From NCBI RefSeq assembly GCF_014643835.1, contig NZ_BMKD01000009.1, forward strand, positions 124,001 to 188,000: 64,000 nucleotides of DNA, written 5' to 3'. The notes under the pieces are model-generated. The model made no database searches. It was given only the letters and a program-made list of their open reading frames with translations, and was not told the origin of the DNA. Source of the DNA: Mucilaginibacter rubeus. Lineage in GTDB: Bacteria > Bacteroidota > Bacteroidia > Sphingobacteriales > Sphingobacteriaceae. Made by a program: the position numbers and the translations under genes. Positions 2,363 through 48,234 of the stretch are shown here, in pieces; within the stretch, counting starts at the first letter, position 1; every line of letters begins with the position of its first letter.

Positions 2363-3206
2363 AATAAGCAATTCACTGGCTTATCGCTTACCAGTACTTT
2401 ACAGGAGCTTACTTAAATATAAGCCCCTTGTTGTAGGGCAGCCCAAAGCATCATCGGCTTATACTGTACTTATGATGACAGGCAAAAGCATCATAGATAT
2501 GACGCGCCTGGCCGTATATTCTATTGCAAAATATTGGGAAGAGATTCCTAAACTGATCATCGCATCCGACGGATCGTTATCTCCGGAAGAAATCAAAAGT
2601 AAATTTAAGTTTTGGCCGGGTGAGCTTATTGTTAAGCACTGGCAACAAAGCGCGGTATATCATCAGGGCAAAAACAGGATCAATCTTTTAAACTATGCCG
2701 AGAGCCATGTGCTTGGCAAAAAATTGGCTGTGATACTTCACCAGGCCGAGATCCAACCTGTAATATGGATAGACAGTGACATACTTTTTTACAAGGATTT
2801 TAAAAAATATATTCCCCAACATAACGGGTTTGTTTGCGGCGGAAGCCAGGAGGGACACTCAACTTATGATGACCGCGTTTTGAATTTCTACGGTAATAAC
2901 CTCTATGATACTTATACCTTCAGTTCGGGCTTATTAATTATTTATGGGCCCAGAATTTGCGAAGACTTTCGGCTGGAGGAATTATTGTTTCATGTAAGTA
3001 ACTATGTGCATTATTTTACCGAACAAACTATTTTTGCTCATATAGCAAGTTCATCAATTGGAATACCCTGGACAACAAAGATTATAAAAAACGATCACCA
3101 GGACAGCCAACAGATTAAGCCTATGAAAAAAAAAGGCATCGTGGGCAGGCATTATACTGCAAACGTCCGACATTTATTCTGGCGCGACTCGTTGTTTAAT
3201 TTATAG
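2352..3206 (+). CDS. GT-A-like glycosyltransferase, first of three tandem paralogues
   Basis: This 284-residue protein has no strong family signature at the start. It carries a TGK motif near residue 43, an ASDGSLS loop near residue 71 and a DSD metal-binding motif at residues 141-143 (VIWIDSDILFY), as in nucleotide-diphospho-sugar transferases of the GT8/GT24 type. The same landmarks recur in the next two genes. The gene ends with an RHY motif (VGRHYTANVRH) that may match the (L/R)HY near the ends of the paralogues. Donor and acceptor are unknown. It overlaps the upstream GT2 gene by 11 bases. Confidence 0.7.
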   Translation: MLNKISNSLAYRLPVLYRSLLKYKPLVVGQPKASSAYTVLMMTGKSIIDMTRLAVYSIAKYWEEIPKLIIASDGSLSPEEIKSKFKFWPGELIVKHWQQSAVYHQGKNRINLLNYAESHVLGKKLAVILHQAEIQPVIWIDSDILFYKDFKKYIPQHNGFVCGGSQEGHSTYDDRVLNFYGNNLYDTYTFSSGLLIIYGPRICEDFRLEELLFHVSNYVHYFTEQTIFAHIASSSIGIPWTTKIIKNDHQDSQQIKPMKKKGIVGRHYTANVRHLFWRDSLFNL

Positions 3207-3212
3207 CTTTCC

Positions 3213-4133
3213 TTGTTACAACAAGTCATTAATTTTTTATACCGCAATCCGCGTTCACAATTACAAAAATTCAGGCGTTTTGGTGGCTATTTCAATTACC
3301 GAAACATAATGAACGGGCGTAGGGAGATGGAACAGCGTTCGCTTGAGTTGCCCCCGGTAGTTTCACATACTAATGGGTTGCCGATTTACTTTTTAACAGG
3401 TAAAAACTACCTGTACCAAACGCTTTATTGCATCCAATCGTTAATTAAGTCAACTGCTGCGCAATTTAAATTCATATTGGTTGATGACGGCAGCTTTAAT
3501 GCTGCACTGGTGGAGAGGGTAGCAAAACAGCTGCCCGGCACACAGGTAATTACAGTGAAGCAAATCAGTGAAAACCTGCAAAACACATTGCCCGAAACAT
3601 GTTATCCGTACCTGCATAAAAAAAGAGCAGTATATCCTCACATTAAAAAACTAACAGATGTGCACACCATCCCAGGCGATGACTGGAAACTGGTACTGGA
3701 TTCGGACATGCTTTTTTGGCACGAACCCAAGGAGATAATTACCTGGCTTTACGCCCCGCAACAACCTTTGCACATGATTGATTGTACAGAAGCTTATGGA
3801 TATTCTCAGCAATTAATGGAACAACTGACCGGAGCACCTGTAAAACCGTTGCTTAATGTGGGGGCTATCGGATTAAAAAGCGAAGCTATTGATTGGGACA
3901 AGCTGGAAAACTGGGTTAAAACACTGGAGGAGCAGGAAGGAGCTTCTTATTATTTAGAGCAGGCGTTATCGGCCATGATGATAGCCGACACTGATGCTGC
4001 TGTTTTAAAAGCCGGAGATTATATTGTTAACCCCGGCCCGGATCAGATAAAAAACAAAACAGGCATTCTTCATCACTATGTCGACCTTTCAAAAGAAGGT
4101 TATTTTAAACAAGCCTGGAAACATTTTTTATAA
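3213..4133 (+). CDS. GT-A-like glycosyltransferase, second tandem paralogue
   Basis: This 306-residue protein is clearly related to the next gene. Both have an L-T-G-K/A motif near residue 61, a D-G-S/T loop near residue 92 and a DSDMLF motif at residues 163-168 followed by EPKE. The end contains an HHYVDLSK segment. DSD is the likely Mn-binding motif of a GT-A fold. No ATG is available near the 5' end; the start is TTG, 6 bases after the previous stop. It probably adds one sugar of the repeat unit made by this locus; specificity cannot be read from the sequence. Confidence 0.72.
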   Translation: MLQQVINFLYRNPRSQLQKFRRFGGYFNYRNIMNGRREMEQRSLELPPVVSHTNGLPIYFLTGKNYLYQTLYCIQSLIKSTAAQFKFILVDDGSFNAALVERVAKQLPGTQVITVKQISENLQNTLPETCYPYLHKKRAVYPHIKKLTDVHTIPGDDWKLVLDSDMLFWHEPKEIITWLYAPQQPLHMIDCTEAYGYSQQLMEQLTGAPVKPLLNVGAIGLKSEAIDWDKLENWVKTLEEQEGASYYLEQALSAMMIADTDAAVLKAGDYIVNPGPDQIKNKTGILHHYVDLSKEGYFKQAWKHFL

Positions 4134-8033: not shown

Positions 8034-9247
8034 AAAACGTTACTTTTATAACTACCGGCCAGCCAACTACTAACCCTCGCCTCGTGAAGGAAGCCGAAAC
8101 TTTGCACAAGCTTGGTTATAATGTTAAAGTGATCTGCTGTTTTTACCAGCAATGGGCCCAAAAAACCGATGAAGCTTTAACAGGCAAATATCCCGGTATG
8201 TACATTTATTGCGGAGGCGATCCGGTGATACAAAAAGCAACTTACCTTAAAACCCGTATTCGCCAAAAGTTAAGTACGCTGCTGTTTAAATATACCCGGC
8301 ATTTCGATATACCTGAAAACGCTATCAGCCGCACACATACCGAAGCGTTGTCTATAGCTAAAAAAATAAAAACAGATCTTTATATCGCCCATAACCTCGG
8401 CGCCTTGCCCGCAGCCATACAGGCAGCAAAACATTACAACGTAAAAGTTGGTTACGATGCGGAAGATTTGCATTCGGGACAGTTTGCATCAACTCACAAT
8501 GAAAGTTACAAGCTCAATAAATACATTGAGGAAAAATACTTTCCTCATGTTGATTATTTTACTGCCGCCAGCCCGCTCATTGCAGAATTTTATCAACGCG
8601 AATACCGCTATTTAAAACCTGTTGTAATAAACAACGTGTTTCCTAAAACAGCGCTGCAAATCAGCCCTAATTATAAAGCTCACGAACCATTAAAACTGTT
8701 TTGGTTTTCGCAAACGGTAGGCCCCGAACGAGGACTGGAAGATGTAATTAAAGCGATAGCTGCTACAAATGGCCATGTTCGGTTACACTTGTTAGGCAGT
8801 AGCAATGAAACTTACAGATCTGCATTGTTGAACCTCGCCAAAGAATTTAAAATAAGTGATGATCAACTTTGGTTTCATGAGCCCATTGGAGCGGGCGAGA
8901 TTTTCGATTTCGCGAGCCAGTTTGATATTGGCATAGCCACCGAAACAGGCATTCCTTTAAACAGGGACATCTGCCTTACCAATAAGATCTTTACCTACAT
9001 ACAATGTGGACTGGCAATGATAGTGAGCGATACGCAGGCGCAAGCCTTATTTATGGAGCAATATCCGGATACAGGAAAACTATACCAAAAAAGCAACCTG
9101 CAATCACTAACGGATTGCATTAGCTTTTACCTCCAAAACCCGGATATTTTATACCAAACCCGTTTACAAAACTACCAGCTTGGCCAAACAGCATTAAACT
9201 GGGAAACCGAAAGCCGTACCTTTTTAAGTCTTGTTCAAAAAGTATAA
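8030..9247 (+). CDS. Glycosyltransferase family 4-like protein
   Basis: A 405-residue GT-B type protein. N-terminal landmarks are FITTGQPTTNPRLVKEAETL and a central YDAEDLHSGQF. The C-terminal Rossmann domain has LFWFSQTVGPERGLEDVIKA and a nucleotide-sugar region around LTNKIFTYIQCGLAMIVSD. The E-x7-E motif is degenerate, as in several Bacteroidota GT4 relatives. The TTG start overlaps the preceding stop by 4 bases. It fits the surrounding polysaccharide operon; the sugar is not predictable. Confidence 0.78.
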   Translation: MKNVTFITTGQPTTNPRLVKEAETLHKLGYNVKVICCFYQQWAQKTDEALTGKYPGMYIYCGGDPVIQKATYLKTRIRQKLSTLLFKYTRHFDIPENAISRTHTEALSIAKKIKTDLYIAHNLGALPAAIQAAKHYNVKVGYDAEDLHSGQFASTHNESYKLNKYIEEKYFPHVDYFTAASPLIAEFYQREYRYLKPVVINNVFPKTALQISPNYKAHEPLKLFWFSQTVGPERGLEDVIKAIAATNGHVRLHLLGSSNETYRSALLNLAKEFKISDDQLWFHEPIGAGEIFDFASQFDIGIATETGIPLNRDICLTNKIFTYIQCGLAMIVSDTQAQALFMEQYPDTGKLYQKSNLQSLTDCISFYLQNPDILYQTRLQNYQLGQTALNWETESRTFLSLVQKV

Positions 9248-36667: not shown

Positions 36668-36751
36668 ACGTCATTGCGAGGCACGAAGCAATCCCAAACT
36701 TTACAGATCGGATCTGCTAATCGGGGATTGCTCCGTACCTCGCAATGACGT
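36668..36751. repeat. Palindromic GAAGCAATC-type repeat before leuC
   Basis: 84 bases with near-perfect inverted ends: ACGTCATTGCGAGGCACGAA on the left matches TACCTCGCAATGACGT on the right, with an inner AGCAATCCC/GGGGATTGCT pair. It would fold into one long hairpin between ilvC and leuC. It is related to the palindromes at 27877 and 48032. Confidence 0.85.
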
Positions 36752-36771
36752 TACTAAAGAAAAATAATAAA

Positions 36772-38184
36772 ATGGGACAAACATTATTTGATAAGATCTG
36801 GGATGCGCACGTCGTCAGCAGCAGCGAGGGGTTCCCGGATATTTTGTATATCGATACACATTTCATTCACGAGGTAACCAGTCCGCAGGCATTTGATGGC
36901 TTGCGTCAAAGAGGCTTGCCCGTTTTCAGGCCAAAACAAACTGTGGCCACTGCAGATCACAACGTTCCAACCATTGATCAGCACTTACCCATTAAAGAAG
37001 AACTTTCACGCTACCAGGTAGATATGCTCACCAAAAACTGTAAAGAGTTTGGTGTTGAGCTATATGGCTTAGGCCACCCGTACCAGGGTATCGTTCACGT
37101 TATAGGCCCCGAGCTGGGCATCACCCGTCCGGGTGGTACTTATGTTTGTGGCGACAGCCATACTTCAACCCACGGCGCTTTTGGTGCTATTGCCTTTGGT
37201 ATAGGTACATCTCAGGTTGAGCAGGTGTTGGCTACCCAATGTTTACTTCAATCGCGCCCAAAACGCATGAAAATTGAAGTGAACGGAAAATTGCAAAAAG
37301 GCGTTGGTGCCAAAGATATTATCCTTTACATCATATCGCAGATCTCGGCTGCCGGAGGTACCGGTTATGCTGTTGAGTATGCAGGCGATACCATCCGCTC
37401 ACTGAGCATGGAAGGCCGCATGACCATCTGCAACATGAGTATTGAGATGGGTGCACGTTGCGGACTGATTGCTCCCGACGAAACCACCATCAACTACGTA
37501 AAAGGCCGTGAATTTGCTCCTAAAGGCGAAGAGTGGGACAAAGCAGTTGCTTACTGGAAAACTTTATACTCGGATGCTGATGCATCTTTTGACGAAGTAT
37601 TATCCTTTAAAGCCGAAGATATTGAGCCGATGATCACCTACGGAACCAATCCGGGTATGGGCATCGGTGTTACACAACACGTTCCTGAAACAGCTTCATT
37701 TGAAGCCAAAGAGCAGGGATCATATAAAAAAGCCCTTGATTACATGGGCCTGCACGATGATGAAACACTATTGGGTAAACCAATTGATTACGTCTTCATC
37801 GGCAGCTGCACCAACTCGCGCATTGAAGACCTTCGTCAGGTTGCCGAGTTTGTAAAAGGCAAACACAAAGCTGATAATGTTACCGTATGGGTAGTTCCCG
37901 GCTCAAAACAAGTACAGCAGCAAGCCATAGCCGAAGGCCTCGATAAAATATTTAACGAAGCCGGTTTCCCACTTCGCGAACCAGGCTGCAGCGCATGCCT
38001 TGGTATGAACGAGGATAAAATCCCGGCAGGTAAATATTGCGTATCAACCTCAAACCGCAACTTTGAAGGAAGACAAGGGCCAAACAGCCGTACTTTCCTT
38101 GCCAGTCCGTTAACAGCGGCTGCGAGTGCAATTACGGGTGTGGTTACGGATATACGCGAGTTTTTGAAGGAAGAAGTTGTCTGA
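36772..38184 (+). CDS. leuC: 3-isopropylmalate dehydratase, large subunit
   Basis: A 470-residue aconitase-family protein. Fe-S ligands are in GSCTNSR and [10 protein letters not shown], and [13 protein letters not shown] marks the active site. It works with LeuD on the isomerisation of 2- to 3-isopropylmalate. The start at 36772 is preferred over an ATG at 36745 that lies in the upstream palindrome. The last codons GTC-TGA fall in the first bases of the GxxExxY element, so the stop codon belongs to the inserted unit. Confidence 0.97.
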
Positions 38185-38794
38185 ACCGGAATTAAATGAA
38201 TTTGTTGAATTACACGAATTTTAGAATTTATAAATTGGCTTTTGAAATTCGTGTAATTTGACAGATTCAGAGAAAAACGATAAATGGAAACTTTTAAGAA
38301 AACGCCTGAAGAATTTAAAGACTGCTCAAGCAAGATTATTGGTTGCGCGATGAGGGTTCATTCAGTTTTAGGGAATGGTTTTCAGGAAGCTATTTATCAA
38401 CGGGCATTAGAACTTGAAATGGCCCATGAAGGATTAGGATTTGTAAGGGAAATGGAGATGCCGATCTTTTACAGAAACGAGCAGATCGGGACGCGCCGGG
38501 TTGATTTCTTTGTTGAGGGCGAAATAATGGTTGAACTGAAAGCGATCATATTTTTGGAAGATGTTCACCTCGCCCAAGGCATTAATTACCTCGAAGCATA
38601 CAATATAAAAACTGGGCTGCTTATTAATTTTGGAAGTAAGAGCCTACAGTTTAAGCGATTATTGAATAAGAAGTATAATCCGGATAATGTCTGAACCGAA
38701 ATTAAGCGAATTAAGAAACCATCAGAATTAAAACTTGATTCAAAAAATTCTAAAATTCGTGTAATTCAAAAAATTCGACAAATTCCGGTTCAGA
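38180..38794. mobile_element. 615-bp unit with ~50-bp terminal inverted repeats carrying a GxxExxY gene
   Basis: The left end (38180 onward) and right end (to 38794) share TCTGAACCGGAATT as exact inverted copies, then 13 less conserved bases, then 23 identical bases (GAATTACACGAATTTTAG and on). That is about 45 of 50 positions. Each end is also itself palindromic (38180-38271 and 38690-38794), so the gene sits between two hairpins. The unit separates leuC from leuD, which normally are adjacent. No transposase is present. An IS-like or REP-like mobile unit is inferred; the repeat structure is directly visible. Confidence 0.75.
38284..38694 (+). CDS. GxxExxY protein (PD-(D/E)xK nuclease-like)
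   Basis: A 136-residue protein with the name-giving motif in LGNGFQEAIYQRALE near residue 35. RRVDFFVEGEIMVELKAI (residues about 73-90) supplies the D...ExK residues of a PD-(D/E)xK fold. The family (TIGR04256/PF13366 type) has no settled function; old NADH oxidoreductase labels are errors. The gene lies inside palindromic ends in the leu operon, and its own stop codon falls in GTCTGAACCG, the same sequence that ends leuC. A role in moving or maintaining the flanking palindromes is inference. Confidence 0.85.
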   Translation: METFKKTPEEFKDCSSKIIGCAMRVHSVLGNGFQEAIYQRALELEMAHEGLGFVREMEMPIFYRNEQIGTRRVDFFVEGEIMVELKAIIFLEDVHLAQGINYLEAYNIKTGLLINFGSKSLQFKRLLNKKYNPDNV

Positions 38795-38806
38795 AAAAAG
38801 AAAAAG

Positions 38807-39397
38807 ATGGCAACTAAAATATTTAAACACATTCAAACCACTATAGTTCCTTTGCCTATCGAGAACATCGATACTGATCAAATTATACCTGCAAGGTTTT
38901 TGAAAGCCACTACCCGCGATGGCTTTGGCAATAATTTATTCCGCGACTGGCGTTATGAAGGCGACGGCGCTCCTAAAGCCGATTTCGTGCTTAATGATCC
39001 AAACTTTAGCGGTAAAGTGCTGGTAGCAGGCAAAAACTTTGGTTGCGGCAGTAGCCGTGAGCACGCTGCATGGGCCATATCTGATTATGGTTTCGATGCA
39101 GTAGTGAGCAGCTTTTTTGCTGATATCTTTAAAGGCAATGCCCTTAACAATGGCTTATTACCGGTACAGGTAAGTGACGATTTTCTGAAAAAGATCTTCG
39201 ATGCCGTTTATGCCGATCACAAAGCTGAAGTAGAGATCGACCTTAAAAGTCAGACTATCAAAATCTCATCAACCGGCGAACAGGAAAGCTTCGAGATCAA
39301 CCCTTACAAAAAAGCTTGTTTAATAAACGGTTACGATGATATCGACTACATCCTAAGCCAAAAAGGCAAGATTGAGGAATTTGAAGTAGCCCGTTAA
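38807..39397 (+). CDS. leuD: 3-isopropylmalate dehydratase, small subunit
   Basis: A 196-residue swivelling-domain subunit with [15 protein letters not shown] at the start, [16 protein letters not shown] as the family signature, and [10 protein letters not shown]. It pairs with LeuC to form isopropylmalate isomerase. It starts 12 bases after the right end of the GxxExxY unit. Translation should be uncoupled from leuC by the insertion, yet the gene is intact. Confidence 0.97.
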
Positions 39398-48031: not shown

Positions 48032-48234
48032 CGTCATTGCGAGATTGCGAAGCAATCCCATGACATAATAAAAATCAAGGTCATGCTGAACTTGTTTCAG
48101 CACCCCACTCGCTAAGCGGCCATGCTAAGCAAAGCGGCCACCTGTCCTATGGGATGCCGAAATAAATTCGGCATGACGGTAGGCGTATGACATCTTCCTT
48201 CAAAGGTCGCGGATTTTAATTACTCGCAATGACG
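48032..48234. repeat. Nested palindromic repeats between hutU and hutI
   Basis: The outer ends CGTCATTGCGAG and CTCGCAATGACG match those of the element before leuC. Inside, at 48080-48177, a second inverted repeat has ends GTCATGCTGAAC... and ...TTCGGCATGAC. One repeat therefore appears to have inserted into another. No gene is present. Confidence 0.8.

What the first reader, a model, noticed from the sequence alone, without database searches (positions are those of the whole stretch)
38180..38794. GxxExxY nuclease-like gene inside a 615-bp unit with ~50-bp inverted ends, inserted at the leuC stop codon
Seen directly: exact inverted 14-base ends (TCTGAACCGGAATT), then a further exact 23-base match, with the whole end about 45/50 alike. 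Each end is itself a palindrome. The only gene in between is GxxExxY, a family of unknown role with PD-(D/E)xK residues. No transposase is present. Inference: the GxxExxY protein may be the mobilising or maintaining nuclease of a palindrome-ended element, comparable to REP/RAYT pairs but with an unrelated enzyme.
Basis: partly seen in the sequence, partly recalled or inferred. Interest (0 to 1): 0.82.

Follow-up and report, generated by a model that had tools for sequence, protein, structure and literature searches.

The report
Nuclease gene inside mobile hairpin element
A small DNA-cutting-enzyme gene of unknown role sits between two matching hairpin ends inside a bacterial amino-acid gene cluster, and comparison with relatives suggests that the unit is a tiny mobile element that slips between neighbouring genes, probably with the help of its own enzyme.

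Summary
Confirmed: 38180-38794 is a 615-bp unit with 45/50 inverted ends around one gene, GxxExxY (TIGR04256/PDDEXK_3). Its left end supplies the leuC stop codon. It is not unique: 85 of 107 scored GxxExxY loci have flanking inverted repeats above the 99th percentile of controls. Three repeat classes (GAATT, GATT, ACCACAGA-like) follow the protein tree. Gene-free GAATT palindromes are dispersed (up to 77 half-ends per genome), mostly in genomes with the cognate gene, with five exceptions, among them G014 with no GxxExxY at all. The gene points the same way as both neighbours in 101 of 125 loci; the upstream reading frame runs into the repeat in 46 of 69. At leuC|leuD, presence needs 10 changes on a 35-row tree, and M. 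gossypii carries another lineage's element whose borders coincide closely with the element's. None of 30 tyrosine-transposase loci has these ends on both sides. Best reading: a mobile palindromic element whose likely enzyme is a stand-alone PD-(D/E)xK nuclease. It works like REP/RAYT but is not a member.

The parts
38180..38794 (+). Whole palindrome-ended unit (615 bp) between leuC and leuD
38180..38271 (.). Left palindrome; its left arm holds five GAATT iterons at a 9-bp period (38189, 38198, 38207, 38216, 38225)
   Evidence: sequence; fold z -5.9; lag-9 signal over 75 arms
38690..38794 (.). Right palindrome; its outer arm mirrors the left arm of the left palindrome
   Evidence: fold z -4.2
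38284..38694 (+). GxxExxY gene, 136 aa, PD-(D/E)xK nuclease family (TIGR04256 / PF13366); its stop TGA (38692-38694) lies in the right palindrome's TCTGAAC
36745..38184 (+). leuC (name from my knowledge of the sequence and from the finding); its stop codon TGA (38182-38184) is supplied by the left end of the element
38807..39397 (+). leuD, downstream neighbour, co-directional

Best explanation
The unit is one copy of a widespread family of small mobile elements. Each consists of an iteron palindrome (9-bp period in the TCTGAAC-type arms, class-specific motif) that carries a GxxExxY gene in its loop or, as here, between two palindromes. GxxExxY is a stand-alone PD-(D/E)xK nuclease with Cas4/RecB-like motifs (E35, D74, E84-x-K86, Q98-x3-Y102; the likeness of motifs is recalled). 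Inferred mechanism: it recognises the iterons of its own palindrome class and cuts DNA at or near the palindrome ends or at the unoccupied site; repair from an element-bearing copy, or template switching between shared TCTGAAC ends, then installs the element (homing-like copying). Gene-free palindromes would be non-autonomous derivatives. The element enters operons at stop/start junctions in the sense direction, so that it is transcribed by its host operon, and its end often replaces the upstream stop codon. Shown here: anatomy, repeat/protein co-variation, dispersal, turnover at leuC|leuD, one transfer tract that fits the element, and purifying selection. Inferred: recognition, cutting, transcription with the operon, and the route of copying. 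My separate odds: mobile element 0.9, GxxExxY as its cognate enzyme 0.75, homing-like cut-and-repair 0.4.
For: Inverted repeats above the 99th control percentile around GxxExxY in 85 of 107 loci (84 of 106 without repeated loci), and in 19 of 35 scored loci of other phyla and plasmids, some of them repeats of earlier loci. Repeat class follows the protein tree: 24 changes against a shuffled mean of 59, 0 of 200 as low. TCTGAACYSGAATT is abundant against a near-zero reversed control; 11 genomes with the cognate gene have 10-77 hits, 26 without have a median of 2 (p = 1.6e-5, not phylogeny-corrected). leuC|leuD occupancy: 10 changes on a 35-row tree, at least 8 forced by supported branches. In M. 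gossypii (element at 2946-3451 of L034) informative sites favour another lineage across 2951-3500 (130 to 16), while the flanks favour the window lineage (55:12 left, 66:12 right). Sense orientation relative to both neighbours in 101 of 125 loci (95 of 119 without repeated loci). Upstream frame enters the repeat in 46 of 69 (no control was run for this count). dN 0.016, dS 0.55 for the gene between window and L054. G32, E35, Y38, D74, K86, Y102, G111, N115 invariant in 60 of 60. 0 of 30 Y1 transposase loci carry these ends on both sides, against 58 of 109 GxxExxY loci by the same pattern.
Against: G014 (42 half-ends, single-contig genome) and G002 (10) have no GxxExxY at E <= 0.001; G026, G030 and G010 hold 15-23 half-ends without the GAATT-type gene. 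Independent pairs: only 4, on average 2.2 in the expected direction, 1.8 without difference, 0 against, not significant. No clear target-site duplication in 62 short palindromes. 22 of 107 and 16 of 35 loci show no repeat over threshold, although several of them visibly carry the motif. With a second pair of references (L054/L037) the element (123:12) and the right flank (53:11 for L054) of the M. gossypii tract agree, but the left flank leans the other way (34 to 58). Few palindromes could be mapped to orthologous sites (8 of 33 and 5 of 11), and 7 of these 13 were occupied in both. No cleavage assay and no structure.
Confidence: 0.6

Rival explanations
1. Passenger: the palindromes are mobile repeats moved by another enzyme (for example a tyrosine transposase) or by replication slippage, and GxxExxY merely rides in their loops.
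For: Genomes with many half-ends and no GxxExxY (G014, G002). No clear target duplication. Palindromes of other sequence families occur in the same genomes.
Against: 0 of 30 Y1 transposase loci from 16 genomes carry the ends on both sides; one has one on one side. Repeat class co-varies with GxxExxY clade, also where two classes share one genome (G001: L022 and L034; G029: L007 and L038). Only Y1 (PF01797) was searched genome-wide; other transposases were not.
Confidence: 0.2
2. Strict vertical inheritance with repeated loss: the element entered leuC|leuD once in the ancestor and was lost many times.
For: The GAATT-type proteins at leuC|leuD are related, and one gain with many losses could fit the presence pattern alone.
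Against: Protein tree and LeuC/LeuD tree conflict for M. gossypii, and the conflicting tract fits the element. Elements of the same class lie at other junctions. Insertion points and reading frames differ. Native-looking leuC ends are found in species nested among occupied ones (L143, L145, L156).
Confidence: 0.1
3. Regulatory hairpins: the ends are RNA hairpins that tune expression or decay of the operon mRNA, or of GxxExxY as a toxin or defence nuclease; mobility is incidental.
For: Hairpins at gene junctions; gene under purifying selection. Weak Cas4 similarity of two relatives in the defence library.
Against: The iteron sequence, not only pairing, is class-specific and is shared by gene-free copies elsewhere. 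The window protein has no match in the defence library at E <= 0.1. No Rfam match in 38000-39000 reaches its gathering score.
Confidence: 0.1

Closest known systems
REP/RAYT (REPtrons) and TIRtrons
   Same: Dispersed palindromes, an enzyme gene flanked by such palindromes or TIRs (PMC3733652, passages read)
   Different: Enzyme is a PD-(D/E)xK nuclease, not a tyrosine transposase; the window's ends are TCTGAAC + 9-bp iterons, not GTAG
Rpn / YhgA-like PF04754 nucleases
   Same: PD-(D/E)xK nuclease gene found in an operon junction, with independent insertions suggested at the same place (rpnC between panC and panD; PMC5350276, abstract, outline and sections 18 and 31 read)
   Different: Different Pfam family; no palindromic ends are named in the abstract and two sections read
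Rickettsia palindromic elements (RPE)
   Same: Mobile palindromes that become part of host coding sequence in frame (PMC10969869, passages read)
   Different: About 150 bp, and no enzyme gene is mentioned in the passages read; here the repeat forms the 3' end of the upstream gene and an enzyme gene sits in the loop
Free-standing homing endonuclease genes (recalled)
   Same: Small nuclease gene, recurrent occupation of one conserved site, transfer tract close to the element
   Different: Palindromic iteron ends and many gene-free copies; cleavage of the empty allele not shown
GxxExxY protein family (TIGR04256)
   Same: The gene is a member (131 bits, cut-off 35)
   Different: The three papers found that name the family or PF13366 say nothing of its function or flanks in the passages read

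Membership tests
GxxExxY (TIGR04256) / PDDEXK_3 (PF13366) | Profile score over the curated cut-off | tested here: met
   131.3 bits (cut-off 35) and 127.1 bits (cut-off 22)
GxxExxY (TIGR04256) / PDDEXK_3 (PF13366) | GxxExxY motif and PD-(D/E)xK-type residues | tested here: met
   G32 E35 Y38 D74 K86 Y102 G111 N115 invariant in 60 of 60; E84 and Q98 at 90% or more
REP/RAYT | HUH tyrosine (Y1) transposase gene in the unit | tested here: not met
   Only GxxExxY inside; Y1 loci in 16 genomes carry these ends on both sides in 0 of 30 loci examined
REP/RAYT | GTAG-tagged palindrome | tested here: not met
   The window's palindromes begin and end TCTGAAC / GTTCAGA; the 62 palindromes were picked by these letters and so are no independent test
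REP/RAYT | Many dispersed palindromes that match the gene's flanks | tested here: met
   up to 77 half-ends per genome
Insertion sequence / MITE | Terminal inverted repeats | tested here: met
Insertion sequence / MITE | Target-site duplication | tested here: not met
   no offset or length clearly above shuffles in 62 palindromes (best z 3.8 among 144 combinations)
Insertion sequence / MITE | DDE or other known transposase that recognises the repeats | not tested
   none inside the unit; only Y1 (PF01797) was searched genome-wide
Rpn (PF04754) | PF04754 domain | tested here: not met
   PF04754 is not among the 12 families matched by any of 60 members at E <= 1
Homing endonuclease gene | Cleaves the unoccupied allele and is copied into it | not testable with these tools
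   occupancy turnover and a transfer tract that fits the element agree, cleavage unknown

The most novel reading that the evidence does not exclude
GxxExxY elements are a separate class of prokaryotic mobile element: a stand-alone PD-(D/E)xK (Cas4/RecB-like) nuclease, without DDE, HUH, serine/tyrosine recombinase or reverse transcriptase, moves iteron palindromes, enters operons at stop/start junctions while often supplying the stop codon itself, seeds genomes with gene-free hairpins, and has done so with clade-specific repeat sequences in several bacterial phyla (loci with repeats over threshold came from records named Bacteroidota, Calditrichota, Chlorobiota, Ignavibacteriota, Gemmatimonadota and Alphaproteobacteria; many are metagenome bins).
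Probability: 0.45. Interest if true: 0.92.

Novelty: new variant of a known kind. Interest (0 to 1): 0.82.

Why it matters
GxxExxY is a named family without a function that I could find, with matches in 46 of 60 genomes sampled here and up to 20 matches in one. Tying it to clade-specific iteron palindromes gives the family a concrete hypothesis, offers a candidate mover for hairpin repeats that lack an identified one, and suggests how a selfish gene could live inside operons by supplying its neighbour's stop codon. The main steps are testable with one small protein and a 90-bp DNA.

Tried and rejected
Target-site duplications: 144 combinations of offset and length on 62 short palindromes gave nothing clear; a few of the 62 are the doubled ends of gene-bearing units and some overlap. 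Rfam: only sub-threshold miRNA and viral models. Solved structures: one chance hit, E 1.2. Defence library: none for the window protein, weak Cas4 and other models for two relatives. PHROGs: weak, mostly unnamed families. Phages, searched with an ACCAC-class relative (L005): no match. Orthologous mapping of palindromes between G032 and others: 8 of 33 and 5 of 11 mapped, 7 of the 13 occupied in both; in two cases, by my reading, a GAATT palindrome lies in place of one arm of a GATT palindrome. A first regex classification of repeats was too loose and was replaced by classification from the arms themselves. Tyrosine transposases as movers: rejected for these ends; one search had left out the 100 bp next to each match, so I repeated it up to the match itself, with the same result, 0 of 30 on both sides and 1 on one side. 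Sequence strings of the repeats in papers: no paper for the strings of 15 to 18 bases; the mixed strings gave 526 and 445 papers, of which 20 each were listed, none about these repeats by title. A search for papers with palindromic, Mucilaginibacter, repetitive and inverted repeats together found none. A search on palindromic repeats and Bacteroidetes listed 20 of 851 papers and one on Rickettsia palindromic elements 12 of 16; of these I opened PMC3733652 and PMC10969869 (passages). Of PMC8934634, PMC9756366 and PMC12085832 I saw one passage each.

Full report
WHAT IS THERE. The unit at 38180-38794 is real. The outer 50 bases of its two ends match at 45 positions as inverted repeats, in exact runs of 14, 6 and 25. 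Its score of 38 compares with a maximum of 17 at 398 places of equal geometry in the window. Each end folds as an imperfect hairpin (z -5.9 and -4.2). The gene inside (38284-38694) is GxxExxY, TIGR04256 at 131 bits, PF13366 at 127 bits. The leuC stop codon is the TGA of the left TCTGAAC, and the gene's own stop is the TGA of the right one. The left arm is a row of GAATT motifs at exact 9-bp steps (sequence). The window resembles Mucilaginibacter; its own assembly is not held.

THE PROTEIN. In 60 aligned relatives G32, E35, Y38, D74, K86, Y102, G111 and N115 are invariant; E84 and Q98 are present in at least 90%. D, ExK and QxxxY in this order are what I recall of RecB/Cas4-type PD-(D/E)xK nucleases; Pfam's Cas4 model matches 16 of 60 members weakly (best E 0.00075), and PADLOC Cas4 models match two of three proteins weakly, not the window's. 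No relative with a solved structure was found by sequence. Between the window and M. oryzae (L054) dN is 0.016 and dS 0.55, so the protein is kept by selection.

THE ENDS BELONG TO THE GENE FAMILY. A scan of genome contigs found 415 relatives, of which the tool kept the best 80; with 30 loci of the profile search these make 110. Without assuming any motif, I aligned the 350-bp flanks of each gene with each other as inverted repeats. 109 had flanks and 107 could be scored; 85 exceed 13.5, the 99th percentile of 279 shifted controls from the same loci (84 of 106 after removing a repeated locus). Three motif classes appear: TCTGAAC with GAATT, TCTGAAC or ACCG with GATT, and ACCACAGA-like. Over 75 TCTGAAC-type arms, chosen by pattern, self-matching peaks at lag 9 (0.51 against 0.30 in shuffles). 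In a looser first grouping, arms of one locus match each other better than arms of different loci of the same class (medians 20.5 against 17.5, 18.25 against 11.5, 15.5 against 10.0). On the protein tree (111 rows) the labels, with 22 rows 'none' counted as a label, need 24 changes; shuffles need 59 on average, 0 of 200 as low. Among 35 scored loci of other phyla and plasmids, some of them repeats of earlier loci, 19 pass the same threshold; three more could not be scored. They include Sphingomonas (fabD | GxxExxY | fabG), Gemmatirosa with a doubled palindrome-gene-palindrome arrangement as in the window, Bernardetia and Bacteroides (radA upstream). The plasmid loci of Treponema, Fusobacteria, Persicobacter and Prevotella, and the Chloroflexota and Poribacteria bins, do not pass. 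Several phylum assignments rest on metagenome bins.

GENE-FREE COPIES. TCTGAACYSGAATT occurs in 34 of 60 relatives, up to 77 times in one genome, while the reversed control is almost silent. Many hits pair up as gene-free palindromes of about 76-120 bp; 62 short palindromes of this type were collected, with flanking consensus (A)TTG...CAA(T) outside the letters they were picked by, and no clear target duplication. Within the genus, the 11 genomes with the GAATT-type gene (at least 73% identity; one, G032, in two pieces) have 10-77 hits; the 26 without have a median of 2, with five exceptions of 10 to 42. Mann-Whitney p is 1.6e-5, but only four independent phylogenetic pairs exist and they decide nothing. 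The counts include the elements' own ends, and G022's count is inflated by a 159-bp tandem array; I did not recompute without them. The end variant tends to match the resident element, as TCTGAACTCG to TCTGAACCGG counts: 17:1 (G001), 17:1 (G006), 53:11 (G018), 50:17 (G032), 12:9 (G034), 5:5 (G029) and 29:24 (G022, array) for CTCG elements; 0:10 (G036), 7:24 (G021) and 16:15 (G028) for CCGG elements; 1:6 in G027, whose element bears CCAG (element types; counts). So three genomes show no clear preference (G022, G028, G029). For the third class, ACCACAGA-N1-4-CACAGA occurs in 18 of 46 genomes with GxxExxY and 1 of 14 without (Fisher p 0.026).

MOBILITY. At leuC|leuD relatives are occupied or lack the element; short junctions such as L145 (leuC stop overlapping the leuD start), L153 and L156 exist. 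On a LeuC+LeuD tree of 35 rows (rows with identical LeuD dropped; 22 with GxxExxY, 13 without) presence needs 10 changes, at least 8 forced by supported branches, about what shuffled labels need (10.8). M. gossypii (L034) groups with the window and M. oryzae by LeuC/LeuD, but its element groups with M. gossypiicola and M. kameinonensis. The element spans 2946-3451 of L034. Informative sites favour the window over L033 by 55:12 upstream (2201-2950), L033 by 130:16 across 2951-3500, and the window again by 66:12 at 3651-4050. With L054/L037 as references the element (12:123) and the right flank (53:11) agree, but the left flank leans the other way (34:58). Elements of the GAATT class also lie at what I read as the ilvC end and a type III restriction res|mod junction (gene names there are my reading of the translations).

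HOW IT SITS. In 125 loci with neighbours of at least 120 aa on both sides the gene points the same way as both in 101, against both in 8, mixed in 16 (without repeated loci 95 of 119). Neighbour ORFs were called by length alone. In 69 loci with a TCTGAAC-type left end and a co-directional upstream ORF, the upstream reading frame runs into the repeat in 46 and stops before it in 23 (no control). Depending on frame the repeat gives an immediate TGA or a short tail such as SEPEFQELV, SEL or SLNQN. So the element often forms the 3' end of its upstream neighbour, and by inference is transcribed with the operon.

MECHANISM. The most economical reading is that GxxExxY recognises the iterons of its class and cuts, and that repair copies the element into the cut site (homing-like), while gene-free palindromes are non-autonomous relatives. 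Two cases where a GAATT palindrome lies in place of one arm of a GATT palindrome at shared ends (my reading) hint at template switching. None of the enzymatic steps is shown. Tyrosine transposases are unlikely movers: none of 30 loci examined, out of the longer list of matches, has these ends on both sides and one has one side, while the same pattern stands on both sides of 58 of 109 GxxExxY loci.

WHAT IS KNOWN. The held literature names GxxExxY in two papers and PF13366 in one; the passages say nothing of function or flanks. The repeat strings tried were found in no paper. The nearest systems are REP/RAYT and TIRtrons, Rpn nucleases with suggested repeated insertion between panC and panD, and Rickettsia palindromic elements. 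It works like the first and shares the nuclease fold class named for the second; it is a member of neither by the tests made here.

Noticed in passing
window 36670-36749 and 48033-48233: Palindromes with GTCATTGCGAG ends (4 exact matches; 0.72 expected by chance with one mismatch allowed), similar to the CGTC-tagged REPs that PMC3733652 says apparently lack a dedicated transposase; one lies between ilvC and leuC. Such sequences also occur in leuC|leuD junctions without GxxExxY (L143, L144, L157, L161, L162, L164).
   Followed up: partly
G022:C3:658012-659456 and G022:C13:17-1620: A tandem array with a 159-bp period that holds one TCTGAACCGGAATT per unit.
   Followed up: no
L041, L042, L047, L048: Element between two genes that I read as type III restriction res and mod: the left repeat codes the C-terminus of one and the right repeat appears to code the N-terminus of the other.
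   Followed up: partly
leuC|leuD in L146, L150, L157, L162, L163, L165: A small gene coding (M)ILEVA(I/V)LN near its start recurs in this junction with or without GxxExxY.
   Followed up: no
G032:C1 tiles and leuC|leuD in L154, L166, L168, L170: Other palindromes or spacers built of short repeated motifs (for example AAGGTAAAAGG and TCTCATATCTAAC types) in the same group, with no enzyme assigned.
   Followed up: no
L186 near 8900-9000 and L192: GAATT-class palindromes nested inside GATT-class palindromes, sharing the TCTGAAC end.
   Followed up: partly
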